A stretch of DNA of 64,000 nucleotides from Woeseiaceae bacterium (GTDB taxonomy: Bacteria > Pseudomonadota > Gammaproteobacteria > Steroidobacterales > Woeseiaceae): the NCBI GenBank assembly GCA_021773035.1, contig JAJFKU010000016.1:1-64000 (forward strand), given 5' to 3'. Below, piece after piece: positions 4,610 through 47,395 of the stretch. The position numbers and the translations under genes are program-made. Position 1 is the stretch's first letter. Each line of letters begins with the position of its first letter. The notes below the pieces were generated by a model, which worked only from the letters and a program-made list of their open reading frames with translations, searched no databases and was not told the origin of the DNA.

Positions 4610-4642
4610 GATCTACTCCCCATTTATGAACGGATCAAATAT

Positions 4643-23762: not shown

Positions 23763-24527
23763 GTGACTAGTAGAAACGTCAGGCCATGGCGCCTTGCAGG
23801 CATGCTTTTGCTATTGGTTGCAACGGCATCGGTGGCGGGCACAGATACGCATTCTGCCGGGCGCACGGAGTATTTCGCGCCGAAGACCGAGGTCCCTCTC
23901 ACGATCGATGGCATCGCAGACGAGCGTGTCTGGGAATCGGCCGAATGGCGCGACATCAAGCATCGCTGGCTGGGGCCGGAGTACTCCTCTCGCGACTTTC
24001 AGGGGCGTTACAAACTCGCCTGGAGCGACGGCAGGCTCTACGTCCTCAGCGAGATCGTCGACGATGTACTGATCGATTCGCACCGCGACCCGCTGCAGCA
24101 GTACTGGGACGACGACTGCCTCGAGATCTTTATCGACGAAGACCGCTCCGGTGGAGATCACCAGTTCAATCACAACGCTTTCGCCTATCACATGTCCCTG
24201 GACAATCAGGCAATCGACATCGGCACAGACAAGCGTGCGCGTAACTATTCCCACCACGTCGAGAGCCGCTGGCGGCAACACGACGACAAACTCGTCTGGG
24301 AACTTGCCATTGACGTGTATTCAGACGACTACGTCGATACCTCTGCGAGTAACGAACCAGTCGCTCTCGTTGCCGGAAAGGTACTCGGCTTCATGATTGC
24401 CTATTGCGACAACGACGGTAGCGAATTGCGCGAGAACTTCGTCGGCTCCGAATCCGTGCCGGAAGGGCCTAAAGACCGTGGCTGGATCGATGCCGGCCTG
24501 TTCGGGTCACTGGTGCTGGTGGAATGA
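23763..24527 (+). CDS. CBM9-like carbohydrate-binding protein
   Basis: Signal peptide; LTIDGIADERVWESAEW...QYWDDDCLEIFIDEDRSG. Confidence 0.85.
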   Translation: MTSRNVRPWRLAGMLLLLVATASVAGTDTHSAGRTEYFAPKTEVPLTIDGIADERVWESAEWRDIKHRWLGPEYSSRDFQGRYKLAWSDGRLYVLSEIVDDVLIDSHRDPLQQYWDDDCLEIFIDEDRSGGDHQFNHNAFAYHMSLDNQAIDIGTDKRARNYSHHVESRWRQHDDKLVWELAIDVYSDDYVDTSASNEPVALVAGKVLGFMIAYCDNDGSELRENFVGSESVPEGPKDRGWIDAGLFGSLVLVE

Positions 24528-27500
24528 GTATGCAGGAAACGCGAACACCTGGCCGCGACGATGCAGGAAACGATTCGGTTAGTGGCGAGTTTATCGACCT
24601 GGCCGGAGAGCGATACTACGCCATTCGCAACGTTGACAGACTGGCGCCGTTTTTCATCAGTATCATTTCGCATGACGATCACTGGCTGTTCGTGTCGTCG
24701 ACCGGGGGACTTAGCGCCGGCCGGGTTTCCCCGGAAACCGCCCTGTTTCCCTACATCACCGTCGACAAGATTCACGAAAGCAGTATTCATACCGGCAGCA
24801 AAACCATACTGCGACTCGACATGAATGGCGTCGAGAGTACGTGGGAACCGTTCAAACGCGAGCACAGCGGGCGCTACGCCTTTACTCGCAGCATCTATAA
24901 AAATCTGCTGGGTAACAAGATCTGCTTCGAGGAAATCAATCACGACCTGCAACTCGCGTTCCGCTATACGTGGGCAAGCAGCGATAGCTATGGCTTTGTC
25001 AGACAATGCGAACTGGAGAATCTGAGTAACCGCGAGCTCAGCATCGATATGATCGACGGTCTGCAAAACGTTTTACCGGCAGGAACACCTCGATTCGCCC
25101 AGTCCAATACCAGTAACCTGGTAGATGCCTACAAGTGGAACGAGTTGGACGAAAACACCGGAGTCGCATCGTATGCCCTCTATTCCGGCATCACGGATCG
25201 CGCCGAACCCTGTGAGTCGCTGCGAGCGAACACGGTTTTCTGCCTGGGGCTAGAGGAGCGGCAAGTGCTTATCTCGTCCGGGCAGTTAGACAGTTATCGC
25301 GCCGGCAAATCAATCGAAAAAGAGCTGCGTCTGCGAGGCGTTCGCGGTGCTTACCTGGTCAGGCACTCGCTGCACCTCGCTGCGAACTCGAGCCGGCACT
25401 GGCAGATCGTCGCCGACGTAGAGAAAGACCAGCGAGACGTCGTCGCCCTTCAGGAACAGCTTGCGTCCCCGGACGTTGTTGCTGCCGCCATCGGGCATTC
25501 CATTGACAGAGGCTCGGACGAACTGGCCAGAATCATGGCCGGTGCCGACGCATTTCAGGCGGCGGCTGAGGAAAACGTCGTCGAACACCACTACGCGAAC
25601 GTATTATTCAATGTCCTGCGTGGCGGTACTTTCGACGATCAATACACGGTGAGATCTGCCGATTTCTCAGACACTATCCGGAATTTTAACGACACCGTGT
25701 TCGCTCGCAACCAGGATATGCTCGCAACGTTGCCGGAAAAGCTGAGCTTCACGGAACTGGCGAAAACCGTCGCAGACCAGCAGGACCCTCAGCTTGAACG
25801 CCTGCGGCGCGAGTACCTGCCAATTTTCTTCGGCCGGCGTCACGGCGATCCGAGTCGTCCATGGAACGAGTTCGCGATCAATGTCAGGGACAGCAGCGGT
25901 GAACGGCTGTTGTCTTACCAGGGGAACTGGCGCGATATTTTCCAGAACTGGGAAGCGCTCGCGATGAGCTACCCGGAATACATCGAGAACATCGTCGCCA
26001 AATTCGTTAATGCCTCGACGATGGATGGCTACAACCCCTACCGCATTACCAAGCAGGGTATCGACTGGGAAGTCGAGGAACCCGACAACCCCTGGAGCTT
26101 CATCGGTTACTGGGGCGATCATCAGATTATCTATTTGCAGAAGTTCCTCGAACTGTCACGAAACTTCCACCCGGATCGCCTGCACACGCTGCTGCGGGAG
26201 CCGGTGTATTCCTTTGCCAACGTGCCATATCGGATCAAACCCTTTTCGGCGCTGCTGGAAGATCCCAAGAGTACGGTCGAATTCGACCACCAGCTCGCCA
26301 ATCTGATTGAGTCCCGCATCTCCGCACTCGGTGCTGACGGCAAGCTCATACTCAATACGTCAGGAGAGGTCTACCAGGTAAACCTGCTGGAGAAATTGCT
26401 GCTCCCGTTACTCAGTAAGCTGGGCAATTTCGTCATTGACGGCGGTATCTGGCTCAACACGCAACGTCCGGAATGGAATGACGCAAACAACGCACTGGTC
26501 GGCCAGGGACTGTCGATGGTTACGCTCTACTACCTGCGCAGATACATAGACTTTATGCAAGAATTGCTCGCAGCGGAAACCCGGCCGGTCGCACTTTCAG
26601 TCGACGTCGCAACGTGGCTCTCCGAAACCTGCGCGGTGTTTTCCGCGTTTCGACTGCGACTGGATGGCAGCCCTGTCAGCCCCGAACAGCGATACGAGTT
26701 GTTTGCCGAACTCGGTAAGGCCGCGTGCCGGTTTCGGGCATCGATCTATGCAAAGGAATCCTTCGCCGCTACGGTCGAACAGGCACCGGCGGCAATCGCC
26801 ACACTATTGGATGACGCGCTAACGGCGATCGACCACAGTATCGGGACGAACGTACGCAAAGATGGCCTGTACAACGCTTACAACCTATTGCAAATTCACG
26901 ACGATGCCGTCACAGCAGACTCGCTGTACCCGATGCTTGAGGGGCAGGTCGCCGTCCTGAGTGCCGGAGCTGTTGCACCAGAACATGCCAGCGACATCGT
27001 GGCGGCATTGTTCGACAGCGATATTTATCGCCCTGACCAACAGTCGTTCATGTTGTATCCGGACCGCCAACTGCCAGGTTTTCTCGACAAGAACCGCATC
27101 CCGCTTGAAGATGCGACAGCGATACCTTTGCTGCGGGATATGCTGGCCAGCGGTGACGAGCGCCTGGTCGTTCGCGACGCGCGCGGTGCCTGCCGTTTCA
27201 ACGCCGATTTCACCAACGTCGGCCAACTCAATACCCGGCTAGACCACCTTAAAGACGTTTCCGCCAACGAGATTGAGGCCGCTCGCGAAGCCCTGCAGAA
27301 TCTGTACGAACGGGTATTCAGACACCAGGAATTCACCGGGCGCTCCGGCGGCATGTTCGGGTTTGAGGGACTGGGGAGTATCTATTGGCACATGGTGTCA
27401 AAACTACTGCTCGCCGTTCAGGAGAACTTCTTTAGCGCGCTCGAACAGGGCTCGGACGAGGCCGTTCAGCAACGCCTCGCCGAGCAGTACTACCGCATCC

Positions 27501-27997
27501 GTAAGGGCATCGGTTTCAACAAGACACCGGCCGAGTACGGCGCCTTCCCTACTGATCCGTATTCTCATACGCCAAAACACGCCGGCGCCCGCCAGCCCGG
27601 CATGACCGGTCAGGTTAAAGAAGAGATCATCACCCGCTTTGGCGAACTCGGCATTCGCATCGCCGCCGGCCGGGTTGATTTTCGGCCGCGACTGCTGCGA
27701 GCGCGCGAATTCGTTGATAGACCACGACCGTTCAGGTACCTCGATGTCAACAATCAGTGGCAGCAATTGACTGTGCCGGCAGCCGGTCTGGCTTTTACCT
27801 GGTGCCAGATTCCGATTGTCTACCGACTTGAGAACGCACATGAACCGGGCTTGCTGATCAGCGGGGACGACGGCAGCGGACAGACGCTGCCGCAGCTATC
27901 GCTTTCGGCTCGGCAGAGTACCGAGGTATTCCGCCGCAGCGGCCGCATCAAACAGATTACCGTCACGCTCCAGGCAGACATGTTGTTCGCCGAATAG
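24524..27997 (+). CDS. Large GH94/GH161-like phosphorylase (probable beta-1,3-oligoglucan phosphorylase)
   Basis: 1157 aa, no signal peptide, WNDANNALVGQGLSMVTLYYLRRY; within a beta-1,3-glucan locus. Confidence 0.75.
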   Translation: MSMQETRTPGRDDAGNDSVSGEFIDLAGERYYAIRNVDRLAPFFISIISHDDHWLFVSSTGGLSAGRVSPETALFPYITVDKIHESSIHTGSKTILRLDMNGVESTWEPFKREHSGRYAFTRSIYKNLLGNKICFEEINHDLQLAFRYTWASSDSYGFVRQCELENLSNRELSIDMIDGLQNVLPAGTPRFAQSNTSNLVDAYKWNELDENTGVASYALYSGITDRAEPCESLRANTVFCLGLEERQVLISSGQLDSYRAGKSIEKELRLRGVRGAYLVRHSLHLAANSSRHWQIVADVEKDQRDVVALQEQLASPDVVAAAIGHSIDRGSDELARIMAGADAFQAAAEENVVEHHYANVLFNVLRGGTFDDQYTVRSADFSDTIRNFNDTVFARNQDMLATLPEKLSFTELAKTVADQQDPQLERLRREYLPIFFGRRHGDPSRPWNEFAINVRDSSGERLLSYQGNWRDIFQNWEALAMSYPEYIENIVAKFVNASTMDGYNPYRITKQGIDWEVEEPDNPWSFIGYWGDHQIIYLQKFLELSRNFHPDRLHTLLREPVYSFANVPYRIKPFSALLEDPKSTVEFDHQLANLIESRISALGADGKLILNTSGEVYQVNLLEKLLLPLLSKLGNFVIDGGIWLNTQRPEWNDANNALVGQGLSMVTLYYLRRYIDFMQELLAAETRPVALSVDVATWLSETCAVFSAFRLRLDGSPVSPEQRYELFAELGKAACRFRASIYAKESFAATVEQAPAAIATLLDDALTAIDHSIGTNVRKDGLYNAYNLLQIHDDAVTADSLYPMLEGQVAVLSAGAVAPEHASDIVAALFDSDIYRPDQQSFMLYPDRQLPGFLDKNRIPLEDATAIPLLRDMLASGDERLVVRDARGACRFNADFTNVGQLNTRLDHLKDVSANEIEAAREALQNLYERVFRHQEFTGRSGGMFGFEGLGSIYWHMVSKLLLAVQENFFSALEQGSDEAVQQRLAEQYYRIRKGIGFNKTPAEYGAFPTDPYSHTPKHAGARQPGMTGQVKEEIITRFGELGIRIAAGRVDFRPRLLRAREFVDRPRPFRYLDVNNQWQQLTVPAAGLAFTWCQIPIVYRLENAHEPGLLISGDDGSGQTLPQLSLSARQSTEVFRRSGRIKQITVTLQADMLFAE

Positions 27998-28027: not shown

Positions 28028-28915
28028 ATGTCAAATCTCTATCAAAGAAAACTGTCCCTGGCCGGAATCGATGCCTCCAGCCTCTCTGTTGACGACTTGA
28101 AAGCGCTCGTCCGCAGTATCCTCGATGACGGAATTCACGGACTTTCATTCAGTCCCTATACCGAAGGCCAGGGCCCGGGCACACTGATCAGCGAGACGCA
28201 GATACGACAACGGCTGAGCATCATCCAGCCCCATGTGGAGTGGGTACGTTCATTTTCCTGCAAGGAAGGGAACGAACAAATTCCGGCAATCGCTGCGGAA
28301 AACGGCCTGAAAAACATGGTCGGCATCTGGCTTGACGACGACCGCGAGCAAAACGAGATAGAACTCGCCAACGGAATCGCAGTAGCGAAGGCCGGCCACG
28401 CCGACATCCTGGCCGTGGGCAACGAGGTCCTGCTGCGCGGTGATGTATCCGAAGACGAGTTGCTGGACTACGTCCGGCGCGTCAAGGAAGCGGTTCCGGA
28501 AACGACCGTGGGCTACGTTGACGCCTACTTCGAGTTCGTCGACCATCCGCGAATCACCGCAGCCTGCGACGTACTGCTCGCCAACTGCTACCCCTTCTGG
28601 GAAGGCTGTTCCGCCGAACACGCCCTGCTCTACATGAAGGATATGTACCGGCGTGTCCTGGACGTCGCGAACGGCAAGAAGGTCATCATCAGCGAAACCG
28701 GCTGGCCGAACATCGGAACGCCGACAATGGGAGCCGTGCCCTCATTCAAAAACGCCATCAAGTACTTCGTGGACAGCTATCAGTGGGCACAACAGGACGG
28801 TATCGAAATTTTCTATTTTTCGTCGTTCGACGAAGCCTGGAAGGTCGACGCCGAGGGCGACGTCGGCGCCTACTGGGGGCTTTGGGACAAAGACGGAAAT
28901 CCGAAATATCTCTGA
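28028..28915 (+). CDS. GH17-like beta-1,3-glucanase
   Basis: ILAVGNEVLLRGD and VIISETGWPNIG catalytic motifs; no obvious signal peptide. Confidence 0.88.
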   Translation: MSNLYQRKLSLAGIDASSLSVDDLKALVRSILDDGIHGLSFSPYTEGQGPGTLISETQIRQRLSIIQPHVEWVRSFSCKEGNEQIPAIAAENGLKNMVGIWLDDDREQNEIELANGIAVAKAGHADILAVGNEVLLRGDVSEDELLDYVRRVKEAVPETTVGYVDAYFEFVDHPRITAACDVLLANCYPFWEGCSAEHALLYMKDMYRRVLDVANGKKVIISETGWPNIGTPTMGAVPSFKNAIKYFVDSYQWAQQDGIEIFYFSSFDEAWKVDAEGDVGAYWGLWDKDGNPKYL

Positions 28916-30114: not shown

Positions 30115-31947
30115 TCAGCGAACGAAGCGAATACTGTCAAGGTAGACAGTGACCGCGGTCTGCCGGCCGCTTATCGTTACGACAAAACCCGACTTGATGC
30201 TCGACAAGTCGATTTTTTTCAGCGGCACGCGGTAGCGCTGCCAGTCGCGGGTCAGCACGATGCCTTCTATACTCGTCTTGCCGGAATCGGGGTATTTCCT
30301 GTCGCCTTCGAGCAGCCCGACGCCAAAGTTGACCCGCTCACCGCCGTATTCGCCCCTGGCCATGAGCTCCAGTTCCGTCGCACCGCTGAGGTCGTATCCA
30401 CCATCGAGGTCACCCCAGTTGTTCGGCGGGTCCTGCCAGGCCACCGCGGCCCAGCCGAAGGGTCCTTCGTATCGCATCCTGATGCTGTTGCTGCCCTCGA
30501 ACGGGTTATCGCCATGCTCACCGTCCATCGTGAGCGCCTCGTTGTTGCCCATCCAGCCGGAAGGCACCCACGGCATTCCGTCAAAACTGTCTTCGTAAAC
30601 AACGATCGGAAACCGCGTTCGAACTTCACCCTTCACCAACAGCGGAATACTGGCCGTTGCCGCACCGCCGCTGTCATCGTAGGCATATAAGAACAGCCGA
30701 TACGGTCCGGGTTCCCCGGGCATCCTCAAGGTCGCACCGCCGCTGTCGCCATGCAGCAAGGCGTCTTCGATATCCGGCAGATTCGGCCGGAAATCTCCGC
30801 CCGTTACGTATTCGGTCGATTCCGGGCGCAGCACCCAGTGCACCGTCACGGACGCCCCTTCAGGATCGGCGATGATGGCGCGGACCCGGACTTTATCACC
30901 CGGATCCAGTTCGGATTCCCCGTCCACGAGCAGCGCTTCGACCGTCGGTGCCAGGTTTTCCGGCCGGCGTCCCGACCACAGTTCCGTCATTACATCGATG
31001 GCGGAAAGGCGCGAACCATCGGGCAGGAACATACCGAACCAGGTCGCCGTGGCCTCCATCTTGAAACCCCAGGTAAACGCATACGAGCCGAGCGCGAATC
31101 CGTCGGCCTGCAGAACACCTTGCTCGTAGCTCCTGCGATAGGCGTCACCCTTCTCCGTGCTCGTCGGTTCCAGTGCGGCGCCCCAGCCGTTCTTCGCGAC
31201 TTCCCAGGGACCCGGCGGGCCGAATTCCGTAATGAGATAGGGCTTGCTGGCACCGGCCGAACGCAAGCGGTCGTACAAGGACGTCGCACCGCCGTAGGAA
31301 TTGATACCGTGTATGTCAATCGCCGGACTGTGTTTGTGCACACTGGCAACACGATCTCCACCAATTTCCGCGGTAACCGTCATGGTTGGATGATTGGGGT
31401 CGAGTGCCTGGACCATCGCGGCGACATCGTTTACTGCTTTCCAGATTGCGGGATTGTCGCCGGACTCAAAACCCTCCATTTCGTTGCCAAGCCCCCAGAG
31501 CAGGACCGCGGGGTGATCTTTGTAACGCAGCACAGCCTGCCGTGCGCGTTCCATCTGCGCGGCAACCTGAGTCTCGTCGCCGTAGTCGAAGCCGTGCCGT
31601 TCATGGCCCAGCCAGATACCGACGGTGACCGACAGACCGAGCGCGTGAGCTTCGTCGAGTAGCGCATCGATATTGTCGGCATCCCAGGTGCGAATCGAGT
31701 TCGCGCCCGCATGTGCCAGCTGCCGCAGCGAGTGGTTGCCGCCAGCACCCCGAACGAAATAGGGCTCTCCGCCGCGGAGAAGTTGCCAGCCTGTGTCCGT
31801 TTTGCGGAGTTCTACCGGTATTACTTCACAGAACGCGCTGTAAGGCACCAGCACCAGTGCCGCGGCAACAGTCGTCAATACCGGCCTGCCTGGGTGCAGC
31901 AAGCCGGTGGCAATCCTAGAAAGCGTTAACGGTAACCAGGCCATCAT
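30115..31947 (-). CDS. Secreted clan-A (GH2-TIM-like) glycosidase with C-terminal CBM-like module
   Basis: LWGLGNEMEG and LITEFGPPG acid/base and nucleophile motifs; start may lie downstream because the ORF overlaps the next gene. Confidence 0.75.
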   Translation of the reverse strand: MMAWLPLTLSRIATGLLHPGRPVLTTVAAALVLVPYSAFCEVIPVELRKTDTGWQLLRGGEPYFVRGAGGNHSLRQLAHAGANSIRTWDADNIDALLDEAHALGLSVTVGIWLGHERHGFDYGDETQVAAQMERARQAVLRYKDHPAVLLWGLGNEMEGFESGDNPAIWKAVNDVAAMVQALDPNHPTMTVTAEIGGDRVASVHKHSPAIDIHGINSYGGATSLYDRLRSAGASKPYLITEFGPPGPWEVAKNGWGAALEPTSTEKGDAYRRSYEQGVLQADGFALGSYAFTWGFKMEATATWFGMFLPDGSRLSAIDVMTELWSGRRPENLAPTVEALLVDGESELDPGDKVRVRAIIADPEGASVTVHWVLRPESTEYVTGGDFRPNLPDIEDALLHGDSGGATLRMPGEPGPYRLFLYAYDDSGGAATASIPLLVKGEVRTRFPIVVYEDSFDGMPWVPSGWMGNNEALTMDGEHGDNPFEGSNSIRMRYEGPFGWAAVAWQDPPNNWGDLDGGYDLSGATELELMARGEYGGERVNFGVGLLEGDRKYPDSGKTSIEGIVLTRDWQRYRVPLKKIDLSSIKSGFVVTISGRQTAVTVYLDSIRFVR

Positions 31948-32656
31948 TGAAGTCGGGCGGCGTCGCCGGCTTGTAAGTATATCCCCACTCCGCGAGCAGC
32001 GACTGCGCGTTCAGCGGGTCGCCCGGTATCAGGCGGACGAAGCCGGTCGAATCCGTCCGGTAAAGATCGTCGGCAACCTGTTCGTTAAGGTTGACCGAGA
32101 ACGAGACCCCGCCGCAGCACTCGAAGAACGTCACCGAACCGAAGAAGTTATCGAGATTCGACCGGTAAGCCTTCAACGCCTGCTCCTGAATCAGCGGATC
32201 GCTGTTGGCATCGAATAGCTCATGCAGAGCTCGCGCCGTGTACCACTGGTTTTCGCCGGACGGGAATCGTGCCAGTGCCGTCGCCCAGAGGTAGAAGCGC
32301 GCTTTCGCACCTGTCGGACCGCCGGGTATGTTGTTGGCCAGGTCGAACTTGGTTTCTGCATCCGCGGAATTAACGTTGAATTCGGTTGTAGCGACAGTGA
32401 TATAGGGATTTTCCGGGTCCGACAATACGCACTGCTCACCGTTAATGCCGACGTTGATGCAAGCCAGGTTCAACAAGGTGTCTGTTGGCAGGACGATTGC
32501 GTTGATCACCGTGCCATCGCCGCCAGCCGTTGAAGGTCCTTCGCAAGCACTGAGTACTGCCAGGCTCATGACAGCGAGTGTCAGGCTCTTGAACAGAGTC
32601 GGCCGGGCCACTTTTCGATGTTGGTTTTTCATAATCATAATTCCTTGGGCACGCAT
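31916..32656 (-). CDS. Lipoprotein of unknown function in glucan operon
   Basis: Lipobox AVLSAC; start may be MIMKNQHRK. Confidence 0.75.
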   Translation of the reverse strand: MRAQGIMIMKNQHRKVARPTLFKSLTLAVMSLAVLSACEGPSTAGGDGTVINAIVLPTDTLLNLACINVGINGEQCVLSDPENPYITVATTEFNVNSADAETKFDLANNIPGGPTGAKARFYLWATALARFPSGENQWYTARALHELFDANSDPLIQEQALKAYRSNLDNFFGSVTFFECCGGVSFSVNLNEQVADDLYRTDSTGFVRLIPGDPLNAQSLLAEWGYTYKPATPPDFNDGLVTVNAF

Positions 32657-32665
32657 ACTCGATCT

Positions 32666-35600
32666 CTAGAACATGTAGGTGAAATACAGAACTGTCTGGA
32701 ACAGATAGTCGTTTGTCCCATCACCGTCCGGGGTAACAGCTTCCGGGGAATCGCCATCCAGTGACCGATACAGGGCGCGAATCCCGACTTTCGTGGAGCG
32801 CAGCTCATCGCGTCGCTCATCAAGCAGGATGGAGTAGTCGATTTTGTACTGCTCCGGATAGGTCACGTTGAACTGCCGATGGAAGTCGTAGGGACCCCAG
32901 GCATCTTTCTTCGCGTAGCCGGAAATGATGTGCTTGCCACCAATAACAGCCTTGGCGTCGAGCGTGAAGAAGTCCCGTGTTCCACCGTTTGGATCGCCGG
33001 TTGACTGCTCATGCCCGCCGAGCAGACTCAGAATGTACTTACGACCGGCACGCGGATTGAAAACCATGCGGCTGGATGCTGTCCACACATCTTCAGATGG
33101 AAGACCGACACCAAAGGACGCATTCACGCCTGCAGGCTCGAAGAAGAACAGATGCGCGTCGGTAAACGTCGGGTACGCCGTGTAGTTCAAGCCAACGTTG
33201 AATGCGAACCTCGCATCCTCACGCATGTCGTTGTCCCAGGCATAAAAGGGGGTTGCGCCGGTGGGATCGTAGGTCACGAATATCTCGCCAGACTTCGCTT
33301 CGCGATTATCCAACACGGCAAAGGGATCGCTGTCCCGGTCGCGCGGCAGGATGCCTGGAAAAAGAATACCGCCGCCAATGGACGGAGAAATAAGCGGGTT
33401 CGCATCGACCAGGTTCTCCCGGTACAGCACACGTGGAAACACCATCCAGTTACCGAAATTCATCATTAAACCGGCATCGTATTCTTTCTTGTTACCCAGC
33501 CCGGAATACGGCAATCGCGTTCCAAACTCCCGCAGAGCGTTGCCGGCATCGGCGACAAGGCCCGCTTCATTCGCGGCAACGTAACCCAGGGCTCCGAAAA
33601 ACGGGAACGATAGCTTGACCTTGTAGCCCAGGGTATCGTCGTCGTCGATCTGGTCGGCGACGATATCGCCGTTTTCGTAGCGGTCATACAGGTCGTCGAC
33701 TTTTTCGGTCGCAGAAAGTATGCCGCCAAACTCCAGCTTGTATTTATCGGAAAACACTTTCGAACCGTACAGGGTCGTCTGACGCGACTGTCTTTCTGTC
33801 GCACCGGTCGAACCGGTACCCTCGTTAGCTCTCGCAATATCCTCCGAATGAATAAAGGTCCAATCGATCTTGCCGATGCTCTTTGTATAGCGAAGCACGA
33901 CCTTCGGGTTAGCGCCCCAATAAACTTCGGGTCCGGCGAGCACGGTCAGGCCTTCGAACTTCCCTTTGCCGCTTAGCTCGACACCCTCTGGCGCTTTCGC
34001 GTTCCAGATATCCATGCCGTCGAGGTCGGTTGCCTCACGAATCAGGCCGAAGAAATCGCCCTCGTAACCCCAGTGATAACGCGGCGTGTGATAGAACGCC
34101 GTTAAGTCGAAATGCTCGCCTTGATAGGTTGCATCGAAGTCGTAGATCTCGACTCGCTCGCGATCCTGAAGGGAAATTTCACGCGTAACGAAACCGACGC
34201 CCTCAATTTGTACGTCGGTTTCGATAATGAGCGGCAGGCCACGACGACCGTACTGAATTTCCAGCGGCTCCTTGTCGGCTACATTACCGAGAATGTTCAG
34301 CGTAAACTGGCCTTCGAAATTGTCGGCCGGCTGGAAACCGAAATCGAGGAATACCATCTGTCCATCGGAAAACTCAGTACCATTCTCGCCGCGTTCAGTG
34401 ATTGCCTGTTCAGCACCCTTCAAGACCAACTCGGCACGAACGCTGCCACCCGTGAGCCCGACGATTTTTTTCTTTTCCTTCGTCTCGGCCTTTAGCTGAC
34501 GTACTTCGCCCTTCAATGCATGGAATTCCATATTCATGTCGTCGAAGGCCTGATTGAATGCGGCCTTTTTGTGCATGTACGGGTCCATGTGCCAGACTTC
34601 GGACAATACGTCGTAGGCCATTCTCGGCCGCGCGGTATAGACGCCGTCGGAGTTTGTCGTGCCGAGCGCGGCAATCCCGAACCACTCCTCGTTCATGTTG
34701 TTCTTGCCCTCGGCCCAGTCGAACAGATAGGCCTGATTCGACCAGGAGGCGTTGTTGTCCTGAATATCGAGATTTTCGACCTGCAGGTACTTCCACCATT
34801 CATCGCGCCATTCAAAGACGAAACCGCCGATGGAGTTGCCTTCCTCGCCGTTACCGTAGGCTTTGTTGTACATCTCCTGCCACTGGTCTTTCAGAATGAT
34901 GGCCTGCGACCTTTGATCTTCTTCGAAATCACGTGCATTGAATGCATCGCTACCGAACTCGAAGAACACGACCGGCAGATCGAGTTTCTCATCCGCGTCT
35001 TTCCAAAGACCGGTAAAGCTCTTGCCGCGATAAGCGTTGACGCCAAGCACATCGAGGTCCGGGCATAATTCCGCGATCAGGTCGATATATTGAATATCGC
35101 CATTGACGATCGAAAACGGGTGATTCGGCGCAATCTTCTTACCGGCCGCCATAACCTCGTTGAAGAGGCTGTACAGGTAACGGGCTTTGGCGGTGTTCTG
35201 CTCGCCCTCCGGCAGGTTCTCGATTTCGAAGCTGGACCACGACAGTCCGTAGTTACTTTCGTTGCCGAAGGCGAACATCAGTACGCCCGGTACGTTCTTG
35301 TACTGGTCAACGAGTTCCAGCATGTCGGCTTTGAGTGTCGCTCGTGTCAGCTCATCCGAGTAGTCGGTAAACGGAACCCACTTCCCACCGACCGTATAAC
35401 CGTAACGTCCCATCAGCGGATTGACGACAGTCATGATGCCATGCTCGCGATAGATATAGGTTATCCACTTGGGAGGAACCATCGAGAAGGTGCGAATACT
35501 GTTGATACCGGCCGCCTTCATCAGCCCAAAGTCGTAGTCCAGCACCTTGCGAATAAAGTCGTCAGATTCGCCCCATAAGTTATAGGAGTAGTTCTGATTA

Positions 35601-35809
35601 CGTGGCGTATAACCCCATACGACGCCCTTTACATAGTGATCACGACCGTTAACCTGCAGCTTCCAGCCGTTTTCATCTTTGTACGTTGTCACAGTATCAG
35701 CGGCCTGCGCCTGTCCGGTCAGCGGTAAAGCAACAACCAGGACTACCGCAACACTGCTGCAAAGCCTCTTCAGGGTCTGGATCAAATTTAAACGCGTCAT
35801 AGCGATCAC
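32666..35809 (-). CDS. Clan-A glycosidase domain fused to predicted outer-membrane beta-barrel
   Basis: FGNESNYG and FFEFGSDAF motifs in the N-terminal part; coiled-coil-like linker; C-terminal alternating aromatic strands ending LYFTYMF. Confidence 0.75.
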   Translation of the reverse strand: MIAMTRLNLIQTLKRLCSSVAVVLVVALPLTGQAQAADTVTTYKDENGWKLQVNGRDHYVKGVVWGYTPRNQNYSYNLWGESDDFIRKVLDYDFGLMKAAGINSIRTFSMVPPKWITYIYREHGIMTVVNPLMGRYGYTVGGKWVPFTDYSDELTRATLKADMLELVDQYKNVPGVLMFAFGNESNYGLSWSSFEIENLPEGEQNTAKARYLYSLFNEVMAAGKKIAPNHPFSIVNGDIQYIDLIAELCPDLDVLGVNAYRGKSFTGLWKDADEKLDLPVVFFEFGSDAFNARDFEEDQRSQAIILKDQWQEMYNKAYGNGEEGNSIGGFVFEWRDEWWKYLQVENLDIQDNNASWSNQAYLFDWAEGKNNMNEEWFGIAALGTTNSDGVYTARPRMAYDVLSEVWHMDPYMHKKAAFNQAFDDMNMEFHALKGEVRQLKAETKEKKKIVGLTGGSVRAELVLKGAEQAITERGENGTEFSDGQMVFLDFGFQPADNFEGQFTLNILGNVADKEPLEIQYGRRGLPLIIETDVQIEGVGFVTREISLQDRERVEIYDFDATYQGEHFDLTAFYHTPRYHWGYEGDFFGLIREATDLDGMDIWNAKAPEGVELSGKGKFEGLTVLAGPEVYWGANPKVVLRYTKSIGKIDWTFIHSEDIARANEGTGSTGATERQSRQTTLYGSKVFSDKYKLEFGGILSATEKVDDLYDRYENGDIVADQIDDDDTLGYKVKLSFPFFGALGYVAANEAGLVADAGNALREFGTRLPYSGLGNKKEYDAGLMMNFGNWMVFPRVLYRENLVDANPLISPSIGGGILFPGILPRDRDSDPFAVLDNREAKSGEIFVTYDPTGATPFYAWDNDMREDARFAFNVGLNYTAYPTFTDAHLFFFEPAGVNASFGVGLPSEDVWTASSRMVFNPRAGRKYILSLLGGHEQSTGDPNGGTRDFFTLDAKAVIGGKHIISGYAKKDAWGPYDFHRQFNVTYPEQYKIDYSILLDERRDELRSTKVGIRALYRSLDGDSPEAVTPDGDGTNDYLFQTVLYFTYMF

Positions 35810-35859: not shown

Positions 35860-38800
35860 TCACGGTGTCACAATCGTCATGTCATCAAAGTAGAAGGTCC
35901 AGTTGGTCGGATCAGTCGCTGCCGCGCCGTTGACACCGTTATCAAAGATCAGCGTGATTGCAGTAACGCCGTTGCCGGTGATCCCGGTGAAGTCAAAACT
36001 CAGCTCTTCCCAGCCGGTGCCGCCGTGATTCGCGGTGATTTCGCCGACCGGGCCACCTTCCAACTTGAACAACACGGGCACAGCTCGTTGCGACCAGACT
36101 TTCATCGTAAAGGAAGTACCAGCCGGTACGTTAACAGTACTCGGCAAAGTAAACGTCGATCCGCCGAACGTTTGTCCGGCGAACTTCTGCATCTGACCGA
36201 CCTTCGGGCTGGTACCGGTTCCGTTCACCTGTGGATTATCGATGACCGTTGCTGCGCCGCCCTCAAAATCCGCGAAGGTATAAGGCGCTCCGGCATCTTC
36301 GAAATCGCTCATCAGCGTCGCGGTAGGCCCACCGCTACCGCTACCGTCGGTGAAGTTGATGTTGTCGAAGTAGACAATGTTGTCCTGAGCTCGTCCGCCG
36401 AGGTCGAAATCGGGGAACACGATCAGCTGATCGATATCGATGGCTTCGAACAGGCCGATATTGCCGGAGAAATCGAAACTGAGTTCCTCCCATTGATTGA
36501 CCAGCGTATTCGCGACCTTGATTTCCGGTTGCGCCCCGCCATTCGCTATCGCGAACTTCAAACCCACGTCACTGATGACCGTTTTCCAGACCATAATCGT
36601 GACGGTGCTGTTGGTCGCGTCGAGTGTCAGAGGACCGATATCACCGTGCGCCGTTTCAGCACCGGCGAACGGCTGCCCACCAACTCGTGCCGTGACCTGG
36701 GCGACGTTCGCCGATGTGTTCGCGCCTGACGGATCAGGGTTCGCGATTATTTGAACCGGCGGATTGTCCGCATTTTCAAAGACAGTCCAGGTGAACCCGG
36801 TACCAATACCGGCTGGCTCGAAGTCGATCGCCGCCACCCCGCTGCCGCCACCTCCTCCACCACCAGAGGTGATAGCAATGTCATCGAAGTAGAACGTCCA
36901 GTTGGTCGGGTCTGTTGCCGCTGCGCCGTTGACGCCATTGTCGAAGATGAACGTTATTCCCGTGACGCCGTTCCCGCTTATGCCGGAGAAGTCGAAACTC
37001 AGTTCTTCCCAACCGCTACCGCCGTGATTCGCCGTGATCTCGCCAACGGGGCCGCCCTCGAGTTTGAATAACACGGGTACTGCTCGTTGCGACCAGACCT
37101 TCATCGTGAAAGTACTGTCAGCCGGCACATCGACCGGCGCCGGCAGGGTCAATGTCGAGCCGCCAAAAGTCTGACCCACGAACTTCAGCATCTGCGCGAC
37201 TCTCGCACTCGTGTTGATACCCGTCGCGTCGGGATTGTTCTCCACGGTCGCAGCACCACCTTCGAAGTCGGAGAAAATGTACGGACCACCCGTGTCTTCG
37301 AAATCGACCAGGTCACTCACGTTACCGCCACCGCCGCAGCTACTCGTTTGTTCGATGTCGTCAAAATAGAAGGTCCAGTTCGCCGCATCGTTCTGCGCGT
37401 CGCCTGCAGTACCGTTGTCGAAGATGAGTGTAATTGCCGTCGCCGGCGCACCAACGGTCGTGCCACTGAAGTCGAAGCAGAGCACTTCCCAGCCGCTACC
37501 GGTGTGATTCGCAGTGCGCTCCTGGTTCAAACCCTCGAGCTTAAGAAGTACGGGCACCGCACGTTGCGACCAGACCTTCACGGAATAGATTTCGCCTGCA
37601 GAAAAGTCGATGGCTGCACCGAGATCAAGTGTGCTGCCGCCGAAAGTATCGCCGGCGAATTTCTGCATTCGTCCAACCATCGCGCTAGCGTTAATCCCAG
37701 TCGCGTCGGGATTGGCTACCACAGTCGCCACACCGCCTCCGAAGTCACTGAAAACAAAAGGACCGACGCCTTCAAAATCCGTTGATGCGGGGGCACCACC
37801 GCCACCACCACCATTACCGTCGGTAAAGCTGATGTTGTCGAAGTAAACGATGTTGTCCTGAGTTCTTCCGCCGAGATCAAAGTCGGGAAACACAATCAGC
37901 TGATCAATATTGGTAGATTCGAACAGGCCTATGTTGCCCGAAAAGTCGAACGTCAGTTCTTCCCACTGGTTGACGAGCGTGTTCGCAACTTTAATCTCTC
38001 CCTGCGCACCGCCGTTCGCGATCGCGAACTTCAATCCAACGTCACTGATCACCGATTTCCAGACCATAATGGTGACGGTGCTGTTAGTGCTATCCAGTGT
38101 CAGGGGGCCGATATCGCCATGCGCTGTTTCGGCGCCAGCGAATGCTTGCCCACCAACTCGTGCGGTTACCTGAGCGACTGTTGCGGAGGTGTTGGCACCG
38201 GACTGATCGGGATTTGCAACGATCTGTACGGGCGGATTGTCGTCATTTTCAAATACGGTCCAGGTGAATCCGGCGCCGGTAGCAGCCGTCTCAAAGTCGA
38301 TGTCAGCGGATCCACCGCCACCACCACCGCCGCCACCCGCTGCAACATCGATGTCATCGAAGAAGTAGGTCTCGGCCGGCGCGCCGGCCGTACCGAAGTT
38401 AAAGAAGATAGTGATTTTGTTATAAGTGGCTGCCGCGTTGAACGCCGTCGTGCCGGACACCTCGTTGGCAAAATCGAAAGTCAGCGTTTCCCACGTATTC
38501 GCTACCGTTGTTGCCGCCTCCGTTTCCACGGAAATCGACGGATCGGACGCGTCCTCAATCTTCAATCGAACCGGTACTCCGGCTGCCGGCGAATACACCC
38601 GCACCGTCATTTCGGTGTTCGCAGCATCCAGCGGAATTGCCGGGACCGCATTGTTCGCCTCGGTTGAAACCGTCGTACCGGCGAAGGTTTCTGCACCGGC
38701 AGCACGATTGACCTGCACGACCTGATTCGCGCCGTCTGCAGGATCCGTCTGCACGCTTGCGTCTTCCGCGCCGCCGAAACCGGTCAGCGTGTAGGTCGTG

Positions 38801-39984
38801 CCGGCGTCATCGAAAGTGATCGCCGAGAACGAACCGCCACCACCGCCGCCACCTGCAGCAACATCGATGTCATCGAAAAAGTATGTTTCCGCAGGTGCAC
38901 CTGCGGCGCCAAAGTTGAAGAAAATCGTCACTTTGTTGTACGTTGCAGCGGCATTGAATGCTGCGGTGCCCGCCGCTTCGTTGGCGAAATCGAAGCTTAG
39001 TGTTTCCCACGTGTTCGCTGCTGTTGTTGTCGCCTCCGTTTCCACTGAGACCCCGGGGTTTGAAGCATCCTCAATCTTCAGTCGAACCGGGATACCGGCG
39101 GCCGGCGAATACACCCGTACTGTCATCCGCGTATTCGATGCGTCCAGCGGAATCGTCGGAACTGCAGCATTCGCTTCGGTTGACACCGTTGTTCCGGCAA
39201 AGGTTTCTGCACCGGCTGCACGATTGACCTGCACGACCTGATTGGTACCACCTGTCGGGTCATTTTGCAGACTCGAGTCTTCCGCACCACCAAAGCCGGC
39301 CAACGTGTAAGTTGTAACCGCGTCATCAAAAGTGATCGCAGAGAACGTGCCACCACCACCGCCGCCGCCAGGCGGAACCAGCGTGATGTCGTCGAAGTAG
39401 AAGGTCCAGTTGGTCGGATCGGCAGCCGCAGCTCCCAGTGTGCCATTATCGAAGATCAACGTGATGCCGGTCACGCTGCCCGAAAGACCTGGCAGGGAGA
39501 ACGTAAGCTCTTCCCAACCGCTGCCGCCATGCGTTATCTCAATGCCGGAACCGGGACCCTGTGGTTCGGGCTGGAACAGCACCTGCACCGACCGTTGTGA
39601 CCAGACCTTCATCGTAAATGAGCTACCGGAGGCAACGGTTAACGGGGTTGGAAGCGTTAACGTTGAACCGCCGAACGTGGCGCCGCTTGTCGCCGCGAAT
39701 TTCTGCATCTGCCCGACTTTGGCACTCGGATTGGAGGTGCCCTGCTCGGGATTATCAACAATTGACGCCACACCGCCTTCGAATTCGGTGAATGTGACTG
39801 CCGGACACGCATCCTCAAAAGTAATGGCATCGTTGCAACTTGCCGGGGGTGGCGGAGGTGGGGGTGGTGCCGGCGTACCGAGAATTGGCTCTTTCCCATC
39901 GCCCTGGCCACAGGCCGCGAGGGCGAATACCGGAAGGATGATCGTCAGGATGCGGAATGAGCGCACGGAAGAAATTGATTGCAT
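35860..39984 (-). CDS. Giant lipoprotein of eight CBM-like modules separated by Gly-rich linkers
   Basis: Lipobox ALAAC, Pro-rich stalk, modules in order A-C-C-B-A-A-B-A, each ending YFDD/YFDN. Confidence 0.85.
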   Translation of the reverse strand: MQSISSVRSFRILTIILPVFALAACGQGDGKEPILGTPAPPPPPPPPASCNDAITFEDACPAVTFTEFEGGVASIVDNPEQGTSNPSAKVGQMQKFAATSGATFGGSTLTLPTPLTVASGSSFTMKVWSQRSVQVLFQPEPQGPGSGIEITHGGSGWEELTFSLPGLSGSVTGITLIFDNGTLGAAAADPTNWTFYFDDITLVPPGGGGGGGTFSAITFDDAVTTYTLAGFGGAEDSSLQNDPTGGTNQVVQVNRAAGAETFAGTTVSTEANAAVPTIPLDASNTRMTVRVYSPAAGIPVRLKIEDASNPGVSVETEATTTAANTWETLSFDFANEAAGTAAFNAAATYNKVTIFFNFGAAGAPAETYFFDDIDVAAGGGGGGGSFSAITFDDAGTTYTLTGFGGAEDASVQTDPADGANQVVQVNRAAGAETFAGTTVSTEANNAVPAIPLDAANTEMTVRVYSPAAGVPVRLKIEDASDPSISVETEAATTVANTWETLTFDFANEVSGTTAFNAAATYNKITIFFNFGTAGAPAETYFFDDIDVAAGGGGGGGGGSADIDFETAATGAGFTWTVFENDDNPPVQIVANPDQSGANTSATVAQVTARVGGQAFAGAETAHGDIGPLTLDSTNSTVTIMVWKSVISDVGLKFAIANGGAQGEIKVANTLVNQWEELTFDFSGNIGLFESTNIDQLIVFPDFDLGGRTQDNIVYFDNISFTDGNGGGGGGAPASTDFEGVGPFVFSDFGGGVATVVANPDATGINASAMVGRMQKFAGDTFGGSTLDLGAAIDFSAGEIYSVKVWSQRAVPVLLKLEGLNQERTANHTGSGWEVLCFDFSGTTVGAPATAITLIFDNGTAGDAQNDAANWTFYFDDIEQTSSCGGGGNVSDLVDFEDTGGPYIFSDFEGGAATVENNPDATGINTSARVAQMLKFVGQTFGGSTLTLPAPVDVPADSTFTMKVWSQRAVPVLFKLEGGPVGEITANHGGSGWEELSFDFSGISGNGVTGITFIFDNGVNGAAATDPTNWTFYFDDIAITSGGGGGGGSGVAAIDFEPAGIGTGFTWTVFENADNPPVQIIANPDPSGANTSANVAQVTARVGGQPFAGAETAHGDIGPLTLDATNSTVTIMVWKTVISDVGLKFAIANGGAQPEIKVANTLVNQWEELSFDFSGNIGLFEAIDIDQLIVFPDFDLGGRAQDNIVYFDNINFTDGSGSGGPTATLMSDFEDAGAPYTFADFEGGAATVIDNPQVNGTGTSPKVGQMQKFAGQTFGGSTFTLPSTVNVPAGTSFTMKVWSQRAVPVLFKLEGGPVGEITANHGGTGWEELSFDFTGITGNGVTAITLIFDNGVNGAAATDPTNWTFYFDDMTIVTP

Positions 39985-40201: not shown

Positions 40202-41152
40202 CTAGCTACCGGAATACACGCGGACGTACTCTACGTCCATCGTGACCGGAAATACCGTGTTGGCATCCGGTGAGCCGGGCAAGTTACCGCCGACCGCAAC
40301 GTTAAGAATAATGTAAAAAGGCTGGTCAAACGGTGCCGGGAATGCGGCAGACGGTGTCGACCACGAGTTTTGCATGGCGTACAGGACGCCGTCGACATAC
40401 CAGCGAACCTCGGTCGCGTCCCACTCGATCGCGTAATCGTGGAATTCTGCCGAGGCACTGCTCGGCACCGTGTAGGTGTTCCCGGTAAACACGTTGTTAG
40501 GAAACGCCGGGCCATGGTGCAGGGTTCCAAGCACATTGTTGCCGCCAGCAGCGTCGAGATTGACCGCTTCCATGATGTCTACCTCACCCGATTGAGGCCA
40601 CGGTCCGTAGACCTCATCCTGAGACAGCATCCAGAAGGCCGGCCACAGCCCCTGCCCCGCCGGCAGGCGCATTCTTGCCTCTATGCGGCCGTACTTGAAC
40701 GCGAATCGATCACGTGTATTGATGCGGGCCGAGGTGTAGTCGTACTGCGCGATCGCCTGCTCCAGTGCAGTGATCGTCAGCATGCCGTTGCCGAGCTGAG
40801 CATTGTCCGGCAGGTAGTATTGGAGCTCGTTGTTACCCCATCCCGGAATGCCATACTCGGTACCATCCCCGGTCTCGAAGAACCACGACTGAGGGTCCAG
40901 TTGTCCGCCATCGAATTCATCGCTCCAGACCAGCGTCAACGCCCCGCCTGCAGACACGGCGTTATTGTTCGCGGCCGTGAGTGTGGGGTTACCGATATTG
41001 ACATTGCTTTGCGGCGGCAGGATCACTGGCGGCAGCACCTCAACAGCGGATAGCAGGTCCGCCTGGTTACCGTCGCCACCGCACGCTGACAACAAGAACA
41101 ACGGTGCCAGTGCCATCACTACGCCTGGCGAGCTCGTTCTGAGTATTCTCAT
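40202..41152 (-). CDS. GH16 endo-beta-1,3-glucanase lipoprotein
   Basis: GEVDIMEAVN catalytic motif; lipobox LLSAC; start at MRILRTSSPG. Confidence 0.92.
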   Translation of the reverse strand: MRILRTSSPGVVMALAPLFLLSACGGDGNQADLLSAVEVLPPVILPPQSNVNIGNPTLTAANNNAVSAGGALTLVWSDEFDGGQLDPQSWFFETGDGTEYGIPGWGNNELQYYLPDNAQLGNGMLTITALEQAIAQYDYTSARINTRDRFAFKYGRIEARMRLPAGQGLWPAFWMLSQDEVYGPWPQSGEVDIMEAVNLDAAGGNNVLGTLHHGPAFPNNVFTGNTYTVPSSASAEFHDYAIEWDATEVRWYVDGVLYAMQNSWSTPSAAFPAPFDQPFYIILNVAVGGNLPGSPDANTVFPVTMDVEYVRVYSGS

Positions 41153-41230
41153 GGGTGGTTTCCATACGGTTTGAGCGCAGGAAACCATTTCCCTGCGCTA
41201 CGTGTAAGAAACCTCAATAAAGCAAGAATT

Positions 41231-45751: not shown

Positions 45752-45870
45752 CCGTAAGCTACAGGACGTAGCCCGTATAAGGGGTTAGGGCGAGGCATCG
45801 ATGCAGGCGGCCACAGCCGCACGGACCGCTTCCACGCCTCGATCTCATCGTATAGCGTTTTAGCAATGTT

Positions 45871-45884
45871 TGACAGCGCTGTCA
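45871..45884. promoter_or_regulatory. Candidate LacI-type operator
   Basis: TGACAGCGCTGTCA perfect palindrome between GH3 and MFS genes. Confidence 0.85.
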
Positions 45885-45889
45885 ATTTC

Positions 45890-47395
45890 ATGGAGTATAC
45901 ACCTCAAAGAAGAAGACTCAAACGAGCCTGGGGGAAAGTATTGAGTGACGCCAATCATTACGTGACCGCTCCTGAAGATCGGATTCCGTTCTTTCAGAAA
46001 GTCATCTTCGGTGCCGGAGCATTCGTAAACAACATACTCGCCTACGCGATGGGCGGTATGGTTATTGTCCTCAACCTTGGCCTCGGGATGAATCCGGCGC
46101 TGGTCGGTCTGCTGGGTGCTCTTCCCCGTCTGACCGACGCGATTACTGACCCGCTTATGGGTTACATCTCGGACAACACTCGAACGCGCTGGGGCCGCCG
46201 ACGACCCTATATTTTCTGCGGCGCCATCGCCGTTGCCATCGTATTCGCGTTGCTTTGGCAACTGCCCGGCGGTATGAGCGAGGCTTTTTACTTTTGGTGG
46301 TTCCTGATCGGTTCGATCATTTTCTATCTTGCGTACACAATGTTCGCCACACCGTGGGTCGCGCTCGGCTATGAGTTGACACCGGACTATCACGAGCGTA
46401 CGCGCCTTATGGGCGTGCAGAATATCATCGGCAACCTTGCTTACATGATTGGTCCTTATTTCCTCGCGATCATGAACAGCAAGCTGCTCTTCGACAATAT
46501 GGTCGACGGCGCTGCCGGACTTGCAATAGTAATAGCGGTTTGTGTTGCGGCCATCGGCGTCCTCCCCGCCATCCTGCTGCGCGAGCGATTTGTCGCTGCT
46601 GCAGCCGTCGAGTCTGAGGAAACCGGCGCGAAAGTGAGTGCCGCCGCCGCAGCGATGCGAGCAGCCGGGGAGTTTTTCTCCGGCTTCGCGGCATCACTCA
46701 AGTTCAAACCATTTCTGAAACTTTGTGCAGCAACGTTTCTTGTTTTCAACGGTTTCATGCTGATCGCGGCATTCCAGACCTACGTGATAATCTATTTTGT
46801 GTTCGGTGGTGACACCGACCAGGGTGCCGTGTTCGCGGGTCACGCGGGCGCGCTGGGCGCATTCTCGACGCTCTTTATCGTCGCGTTGATCACGTGGTTA
46901 TGTCCGAAGTTCGGTAAACGACGTGCCTTCTATGTGACGACCGGTATATCGATGTTCGGTTACCTGCTCAAATGGGTTTGCTACACGCCGGAACATCCCT
47001 GGTTGCTGCTGATCCCCGCGCCGTTTATCGCGTTTGGTTTTGCGGGTCTGTTTACGTTGATGCCTGCGATGGTGGCCGATGTCGTGGACGCGGATGAACT
47101 CGAAACCCACGAACGGCGCGAAGGCATGTATGGCTCGATATTCTGGTGGGTCGTGAAGCTGGGAATGGCGGCAGCGCTGGCGGCTGGCGGTTTCCTGTTG
47201 AACTTCACCGGTTTCGACGTAACGCTTGGCGGCGACCAGGCCGAACAGACGATCTATATGATGCGCATATACGATATTTTCGTACCGATCCTGGCGTCCG
47301 GCATTGCGATATGGGCGATCGCGTCGTACACCATCACTGAAGAAAAGGCGCACGACGTACGGATGCAACTCGAAGCGCGTCGCGGAGCAGTCTAG
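45890..47395 (+). CDS. MFS / GPH-family sugar:cation symporter
   Basis: DAITDPLMGYISDNTRTRWGRRRPYIF; 12 TM-like; start MEYTPQRRR chosen to exclude the operator. Confidence 0.9.
   Translation: MEYTPQRRRLKRAWGKVLSDANHYVTAPEDRIPFFQKVIFGAGAFVNNILAYAMGGMVIVLNLGLGMNPALVGLLGALPRLTDAITDPLMGYISDNTRTRWGRRRPYIFCGAIAVAIVFALLWQLPGGMSEAFYFWWFLIGSIIFYLAYTMFATPWVALGYELTPDYHERTRLMGVQNIIGNLAYMIGPYFLAIMNSKLLFDNMVDGAAGLAIVIAVCVAAIGVLPAILLRERFVAAAAVESEETGAKVSAAAAAMRAAGEFFSGFAASLKFKPFLKLCAATFLVFNGFMLIAAFQTYVIIYFVFGGDTDQGAVFAGHAGALGAFSTLFIVALITWLCPKFGKRRAFYVTTGISMFGYLLKWVCYTPEHPWLLLIPAPFIAFGFAGLFTLMPAMVADVVDADELETHERREGMYGSIFWWVVKLGMAAALAAGGFLLNFTGFDVTLGGDQAEQTIYMMRIYDIFVPILASGIAIWAIASYTITEEKAHDVRMQLEARRGAV

What the first reader, a model, noticed from the sequence alone, without database searches (positions are those of the whole stretch)
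32666..35809. Apparent fusion of a secreted glycosidase to an outer-membrane beta-barrel
One 1047-aa ORF starts with a signal peptide and a clan-A TIM-barrel glycosidase region (NGRDHYVKGVVWG..., acid/base FGNESNYG, nucleophile FFEFGSD), then a short charged coiled-coil-like segment (FHALKGEVRQLKAETKEKKK), then about 570 aa of strand-rich sequence with a terminal aromatic residue (LYFTYMF), the usual mark of BamA-assembled barrels. This would tether the enzyme to a porin-like barrel, either displayed on the surface or in the periplasmic mouth of the pore. I do not recognise it as a standard characterised architecture.
Basis: partly seen in the sequence, partly recalled or inferred. Interest (0 to 1): 0.78.

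Follow-up and report, generated by a model that had tools for sequence, protein, structure and literature searches.

The report
Sugar-cutting enzyme fused to membrane pore
A marine bacterium, and many distant relatives in at least eight other phyla, carry one protein that joins a sugar-cutting enzyme of the laminarinase type to a very wide outer-membrane pore, among genes for eating beta-glucans, so it is probably a combined gate and cutter for importing algal or fungal glucans.

Summary
Confirmed and extended. On the MINUS strand at 32666-35800 lies an intact 1044-codon gene: Sec signal peptide, clan GH-A TIM barrel (about 37-404), two helices, then an outer-membrane barrel (447-1044). AlphaFold gives confident models (whole protein pLDDT 86.5; barrel alone 90.3). 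I count 26 membrane strands with long/short loop alternation that puts both termini on the periplasmic side. The enzyme resembles GH158 laminarinases but is a separate, more distant lineage; acid/base E181 and nucleophile E281 are invariant in 69 homologues. The barrel matches no Pfam family. The fusion is not an artefact: it is in one frame in 78 of the 80 best loci from a scan of 85,488 genomes, at 37-72% identity, across at least nine phyla. Neighbours are a beta-1,3-glucan kit (GH149 phosphorylase, true GH158, GH16, GH17, GH30, GH3, MFS/ABC sugar importer, LacI) with usually no TonB receptor nearby, plus a lipoprotein gene directly downstream in 30 loci. Best reading: a TonB-independent (or TonB-supplementing) glucan porin with a tethered periplasmic beta-glucanase. 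Substrate, transport and side of the membrane are inferred. I found no description of it in the open literature held or in Pfam/NCBIfam.

The parts
32666..35800 (-). GH158-like glycosidase / 26-strand outer-membrane barrel fusion, 1044 aa
35699..35800 (-). Sec signal peptide, residues 1-34 (predicted by eye, AQA|A)
   Evidence: sequence; helix 3-28
34589..35692 (-). clan GH-A TIM-barrel domain, residues 37-404; nearest solved relatives are GH158
35258..35260 (-). codon of catalytic acid/base E181 (preceded by N180), invariant in 69 sequences
   Evidence: position equivalent to BuGH158 N136-E137 (PMC7157763)
34958..34960 (-). codon of nucleophile E281, invariant in 69 sequences
   Evidence: equivalent to BuGH158 E220 (PMC7157763)
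34466..34579 (-). helical linker, residues 408-445 (charged helix 424-442)
   Evidence: natural GH-only versions end within this segment
32669..34462 (-). outer-membrane beta-barrel, residues 447-1044, about 26 membrane strands; no Pfam family
31916..32656 (-). small lipoprotein (lipobox LSAC), gene directly downstream; homologue in the same place in 30 loci; possible barrel partner
   Evidence: no Pfam or NCBIfam match
30115..31947 (-). true GH158 endo-beta-1,3-glucanase (610 aa)
   Evidence: PDB 9oro GH158(Pro) E=1.4e-102, 6pal BuGH158 E=9.9e-55
35860..39984 (-). 1374-aa lipoprotein of repeated CBM-like domains, upstream in the same direction; candidate glucan-binding protein
   Evidence: CBM_35_2 match; sequence
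24524..27997 (+). GH149 beta-1,3-glucan phosphorylase (cytoplasmic)
   Evidence: NCBIfam equivalog NF058639 1710 bits; PDB 6hq6
28028..28915 (+). GH17, no signal peptide seen
   Evidence: PF00332
29071..30108 (+). LacI-type regulator (homologues in 22 loci)
   Evidence: sequence, cluster 7; not scanned with Pfam
40202..41188 (-). GH16 lipoprotein, probable extracellular beta-glucanase
   Evidence: PF00722
42490..45751 (-). GH17-like lipoprotein (42490-43518) and GH3 beta-glucosidase (43520-45751)
   Evidence: homology clusters 6 and 9, the latter shared with annotated BglX; not scanned with Pfam
45866..47395 (+). MFS_2 sugar symporter
   Evidence: PF13347 E=8e-58

Best explanation
The protein is an outer-membrane uptake device for beta-1,3-glucan oligosaccharides in which the pore and a beta-glucanase are one chain. 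Surface GH16/CBM lipoproteins cut and hold the glucan; fragments pass through the wide 26-strand barrel; the tethered GH158-like domain at the periplasmic mouth cuts them at once, which keeps the inward gradient steep without TonB energy; periplasmic GH158/GH17/GH3 finish the work; an MFS_2 (or ABC) importer takes up the short sugars and the cytoplasmic GH149 phosphorylase, GH17 and GH3 use them. The small lipoprotein encoded directly downstream may be a barrel subunit, as LptE is for LptD. Shown by computation: the fusion, both folds, catalytic residue conservation, conservation across phyla, beta-glucan gene context. Inferred: substrate, transport, periplasmic side, gradient effect, lipoprotein role.
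For: Single open frame through both domains in 14 near-complete relatives and in 78 of the 80 best loci from 85,488 genomes, at least 37% identity; no separate barrel gene seen in any genome searched with the barrel alone or its profile. AlphaFold pLDDT 86.5 whole, 90.3 barrel, pTM 0.74/0.84; Foldseek: GH158 first for the N-part, outer-membrane barrels including polysaccharide and sugar channels for the C-part. N180-E181 and E281 invariant in 69 sequences, matching residues whose mutation kills BuGH158 (PMC7157763). Neighbours across phyla: GH16 in 49 loci, GH149 in 31, MFS_2 in 31, GH17 in 27, GH30 in 22, plus GH3, GH1, SBP_bac_5, LacI, ROK. TonB receptor within the fetched flanks in only 3 of 78 fusion loci in that set, and none in the window's glucan cluster although the genome has 97. 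GH and barrel divergence are correlated, r=0.84 over 69 sequences. Both termini on the short-turn side: outer loops average 19 residues, inner turns 5.
Against: No biochemical or transport data. Model coordinates and PAE were not available, so barrel closure, pore openness and the position of the GH domain relative to the barrel were not measured; TM-scores to known barrels are low (about 0.4 at best). Many fetched flanks are short, so absence of a TonB receptor nearby is a weak negative. In the host's own order a TonB receptor sits near the GH149 gene in 6 of 15 fusion loci, so the barrel does not simply replace TonB transport there. Four relatives keep only the glycosidase, so the barrel is dispensable in some lineages.
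Confidence: 0.62

Rival explanations
1. Autotransporter-like: the barrel exports the glycosidase through itself and displays it on the cell surface, with helix 424-442 lying in the pore; the barrel is a secretion and anchoring device, not an uptake pore.
For: Order signal peptide - enzyme - helix - C-terminal barrel is that of classical autotransporters; the helix directly precedes strand 1. Surface laminarinases are usual in such loci (BuGH158 is thought to be on the surface, PMC7157763).
Against: Classical autotransporter barrels have 12 strands and about 280 residues (general knowledge); this one has about 26 strands and 600 residues. No autotransporter Pfam match in ten diverse barrels. 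Extracellular cutting is already covered by GH16 lipoproteins.
Confidence: 0.18
2. The barrel is only a membrane anchor or scaffold for a periplasmic beta-glucanase and conducts no glucan; uptake runs through TonB receptors or general porins elsewhere in the genome.
For: 97 TonB receptors in the genome; a TonB receptor near the GH149 gene in 6 of 15 fusion loci of the order, and GH-only versions exist beside TonB receptors.
Against: A 600-residue barrel kept across at least nine phyla at 42% mean pairwise identity is costly for an anchor that a lipid tail could replace; in the wider set only 3 of 78 fusion loci have a TonB receptor nearby.
Confidence: 0.12
3. Export rather than import: the barrel is the outer-membrane channel of a beta-glucan exopolysaccharide system with an attached trimming glycosidase, like AlgE, BcsC/BcsZ or PgaA/PgaB.
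For: Foldseek's first barrel hit is AlgE; secretion channels with partnered glycosidases are known; some hosts (Thiomicrorhabdus, Myxococcus) are not typical laminarin eaters.
Against: No glycosyltransferase or polymerase turned up among the conserved neighbours that were scanned; they are hydrolases, a phosphorylase, sugar importers and LacI/ROK regulators.
Confidence: 0.06
4. Artefact: two genes joined by a sequencing error or by the ORF finder.
For: None found.
Against: Same continuous frame in dozens of independent genomes, isolates included.
Confidence: 0.01

Closest known systems
GH158 endo-beta-1,3-glucanases (BuGH158, PDB 6pal; GH158(Pro), PDB 9oro)
   Same: Clan GH-A TIM barrel with the same N-E acid/base and E nucleophile; found in the same beta-1,3-glucan loci; best sequence and fold match for residues 37-404.
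   Different: Only remote similarity (E about 3e-6 to 3e-7) while the neighbouring gene is a true GH158 (E=1e-102); BuGH158 has an Ig-like domain, not an outer-membrane barrel.
MFS-GH17 fusion FbGH17b (FORMB_24740) of Formosa, PMC6246565
   Same: A beta-glucan hydrolase fused to a transporter in laminarin loci; its authors call it a transporter-CAZyme fusion not described for other bacteria.
   Different: Inner-membrane MFS transporter with 12 helices, flavobacterial; here an outer-membrane barrel spread over many phyla.
SusC/SusD and TonB-dependent receptors of laminarin PULs
   Same: Outer-membrane barrel encoded among beta-glucan genes; presumed job of passing oligosaccharides.
   Different: No plug, no TonB-receptor match and no SusD; about 26 strands instead of 22; carries its own glycosidase.
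26-strand outer-membrane barrels LptD (with LptE) and MtrB (with MtrA)
   Same: Same strand number by my count; both among the Foldseek hits (Mtr complex 6r2q_B has the highest TM-score listed, 0.41/0.40); LptD also has a lipoprotein partner.
   Different: No detectable sequence similarity; no glycosidase domain; unrelated functions.
Polysaccharide and sugar channels AlgE, chitoporin ChiP, ScrY
   Same: Outer-membrane barrels that pass sugars; among the top Foldseek hits.
   Different: 16-18 strands (general knowledge), no fused enzyme.

Membership tests
Clan GH-A glycoside hydrolases | TIM barrel with acid/base Glu (after Asn) behind strand 4 and nucleophile Glu behind strand 7 | tested here: met
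   AlphaFold model; E181 follows strand 173-178 and E281 lies at the end of strand 277-282; N180, E181, E281 invariant in 69 sequences
GH158 | sequence similarity at family level to BuGH158 / GH158(Pro) | tested here: not met
   E=3.2e-6 single sequence, 3e-7 to 3e-6 with profile, part of the domain only, against 1e-102 for the true GH158 next door. A sister lineage, not filed as GH158
[quoted passage not shown]
   no assay possible
GH2 (as annotated by RefSeq for the Bacteroides homologue) | jelly-roll and Ig domains ahead of the TIM barrel; Glyco_hydro_2_C above the curated cut-off | tested here: not met
   19.4 bits against a cut-off of 21 for the window protein; no N-terminal domains in the model. 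The Bacteroides homologue does pass the cut-off (35.5 bits)
Outer-membrane beta-barrel protein | signal peptide and an even number of amphipathic membrane strands with long outer loops and short inner turns | tested here: met
Any named porin or barrel family in Pfam | Pfam match | tested here: not met
   none in ten diverse barrels, up to E=10, except DUF matches below cut-off
TonB-dependent receptor / SusC | plug domain and TonB-receptor barrel profile | tested here: not met
   no TonB or plug Pfam match; not recovered by a TonB-receptor profile that found the window's own receptor at 2414-4612
Classical autotransporter (type Va) | 12-strand C-terminal barrel, autotransporter profile | tested here: not met
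   about 26 strands, no profile match

The most novel reading that the evidence does not exclude
A previously unrecognised, phylum-crossing class of outer-membrane glycan importer that works without SusCD: a 26-strand channel with a catalytic domain at its periplasmic mouth and a dedicated lipoprotein subunit, in which hydrolysis on arrival drives net uptake.
Probability: 0.4. Interest if true: 0.87.

Novelty: new variant of a known kind. Interest (0 to 1): 0.72.

Why it matters
Outer-membrane passage of oligosaccharides is thought to need either porins or TonB-powered SusC-type receptors. Earlier work on GH149 clusters noted some that lack an outer-membrane transporter or lack susCD (PMC5827456); this family is a candidate for that missing part, overlooked because annotation sees only a 'GH2 TIM barrel' and no database used here models the barrel. 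It would give a one-gene test of whether hydrolysis at the pore exit can drive uptake, and it bears on turnover of laminarin, a very large carbon pool. Cultured hosts exist (Flavobacterium, Epilithonimonas, Corallococcus, Myxococcus, Geomonas, Thiomicrorhabdus, Bacteroides finegoldii).

Tried and rejected
1) Frameshift artefact: rejected. 2) Exopolysaccharide export: considered because of autotrophic and myxobacterial hosts; neighbours are catabolic, so put low. 3) 'Barrel replaces the TonB receptor': tested in the host's order by fetching regions around GH149 or barrel genes. A first pass with HMMER filters missed some receptors (L144, L146, L171); a rerun without filters gave receptors in 6/15 fusion loci against 10/14 loci without the barrel, Fisher p=0.14 (0.10 without short contigs), and 3/3 GH-only against 6/13 fusion loci, p=0.21. 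A trend only; not claimed. 4) Terminal aromatic residue as barrel mark: not conserved over the family. 5) Sequence search of the barrel against PDB: nothing but noise. 7) Literature searches for a glycosidase-porin fusion gave nothing apart from the MFS-GH17 fusion; the library lacks most subscription papers. 8) A PHROGs search gave only noise.

Full report
OBSERVATION. The ORF at 32666-35809 is real and lies on the minus strand; the plus strand of the same stretch is closed by many stops. The likelier start is ATG at 35800, giving 1044 aa with a Sec signal peptide. It occurs once in the genome. The host genome has 5.38 Mb in 76 contigs; several of its closest public relatives are labelled Woeseiaceae, a marine sediment family for which laminarin loci with GH3, GH16, GH17, GH149 and GH158 have been reported (PMC12175321).

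ENZYME HALF. Pfam gives only a sub-threshold GH2 TIM-barrel match. The best solved relatives by sequence are GH158(Pro) 9oro (E=3e-6; profile 3e-7) and BuGH158 6pal (profile 3e-6), then GH2 and a mannanase; by fold again GH158 first (E=2e-14). N180-E181 and E281 are invariant in 69 homologues and correspond to N136-E137 and E220 of BuGH158, whose mutation abolishes activity (PMC7157763). Because the gene next door (30115-31947) is a true GH158 (E=1e-102), the fused domain is better called a GH158-like sister lineage of clan GH-A than a GH158.

BARREL HALF. AlphaFold on an alignment of 69 sequences taken from the window and from the search for related loci gave pLDDT 86.5 and pTM 0.74 for the whole protein, and pLDDT 90.3 and pTM 0.84 for residues 408-1044 alone. 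Strand segments of six or more residues number 30; taking the two hairpins 704-717 and 882-899 as parts of outer loops leaves 26 membrane strands (my reading of the secondary structure). Loops alternate: mean 19 residues on one side, 5 on the other, with both termini on the short-turn side, i.e. periplasmic by the usual rule for outer-membrane barrels. Foldseek hits are mostly outer-membrane barrels (AlgE, TonB receptors, MOMP, chitoporin, Occ/OprD, LptD, Mtr complex), at low TM-score, as expected for a different strand number. No Pfam family matches ten diverse members. Coordinates and PAE could not be read, so closure and pore width are not measured.

FAMILY. Full-length relatives at 58-72% identity are in the same order and class, at 38% in Bacteroides finegoldii and Persicobacter. 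Of the best 80 loci, 78 have the barrel, in the same open frame as the enzyme wherever the contig holds both. Record titles include Gammaproteobacteria, Geobacteraceae (Geomonas), Myxococcota, Bacteroidota, Cloacimonadota, Gemmatimonadota, Eisenbacteria, Krumholzibacteriota, Zixibacteria, Delongbacteria and others, with isolates among them. Searches with the barrel alone, as sequence (399 genomes) or profile (100 genomes), found no separate barrel gene; the short pieces found lie on contig-end fragments. Pairwise identities of enzyme and barrel correlate at r=0.84, as expected if they travel together. Four relatives carry an enzyme-only version that stops within the helical linker, with no trace of the barrel after it, which marks a natural domain boundary.

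CONTEXT. In the window, the gene stands in a run of same-direction genes: a 1374-aa CBM-repeat lipoprotein, the fusion, a small lipoprotein about 10 bases on, and GH158. Around them are GH149 phosphorylase, GH17, a LacI-type regulator, two GH16, a GH17-like lipoprotein, GH3 and an MFS_2 symporter. Clustering of neighbouring ORFs from 83 loci found GH16 in 49, GH149 in 31, MFS_2 in 31, GH17 in 27, LacI in 22, GH30 in 22 loci, with GH3, GH1, ABC binding proteins and ROK regulators in others. The small lipoprotein is directly downstream (from -82 to 79 bases), same strand, in 30 loci, from Woeseiaceae to Myxococcus. No SusC or SusD is annotated near the Bacteroides copy. TonB receptors are within reach in 3 of 78 fusion loci of the wide set (the profile came from the host's own receptors and could miss remote ones, and some flanks are short, but 49 large neighbouring ORFs scanned with Pfam also showed no TonB family among the 25 commonest). 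In the host's order receptors are commoner: 6/15 fusion loci against 10/14 without the barrel, not significant.

MECHANISM. The best-supported reading is a beta-1,3-glucan uptake porin with a tethered periplasmic glucanase. The gene context gives the substrate class; the topology gives the side; hydrolysis at the exit would keep the gradient inward without TonB energy. A 26-strand channel left open would harm the cell, so a plug is expected: outer loops, the GH domain itself, or the downstream lipoprotein, as LptE plugs LptD. These steps are inferred. Rivals are self-export of the enzyme, a mere anchor, and glucan export.

NOVELTY. Transporter-CAZyme fusions have one precedent that I could find, the inner-membrane MFS-GH17 protein of Formosa (PMC6246565). 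GH149 clusters without an outer-membrane transporter, and others without susCD, were noted in PMC5827456. I found no paper in the open library, and no Pfam or NCBIfam family, that describes a glycosidase fused to an outer-membrane barrel of this kind. Each half is of a known kind; the combination, its size and its spread are new to these sources.

Noticed in passing
window 31916-32656 (-): Small lipoprotein family without Pfam or NCBIfam match, directly downstream of the fusion in 30 loci; possible LptE-like partner of the barrel.
   Followed up: partly
window 35860-39984 (-): 1374-aa lipoprotein made of several CBM-like repeats with Gly-rich linkers; candidate surface glucan-binding protein.
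   Followed up: no
L064:9992-11332, L069:3268-4599, L163:1230-2567, L165:9132-10457(-): Relatives whose gene ends at the enzyme/barrel boundary (barrel lost); in the three longer contigs a TonB receptor lies in the same region.
   Followed up: partly
L026:11867-22900 (Bacteroides finegoldii, record filed as plasmid): Beta-glucan locus with the fusion, GH16, fimbrillin-like protein and BglX but no annotated SusC/SusD; the record carries valine-tRNA ligase and rpsA, so it looks like a chromosomal fragment filed as a plasmid.
   Followed up: no
own genome (G000): 97 TonB-receptor barrel matches in one 5.4-Mb genome, only one of them in the window (2414-4612, -).
   Followed up: no
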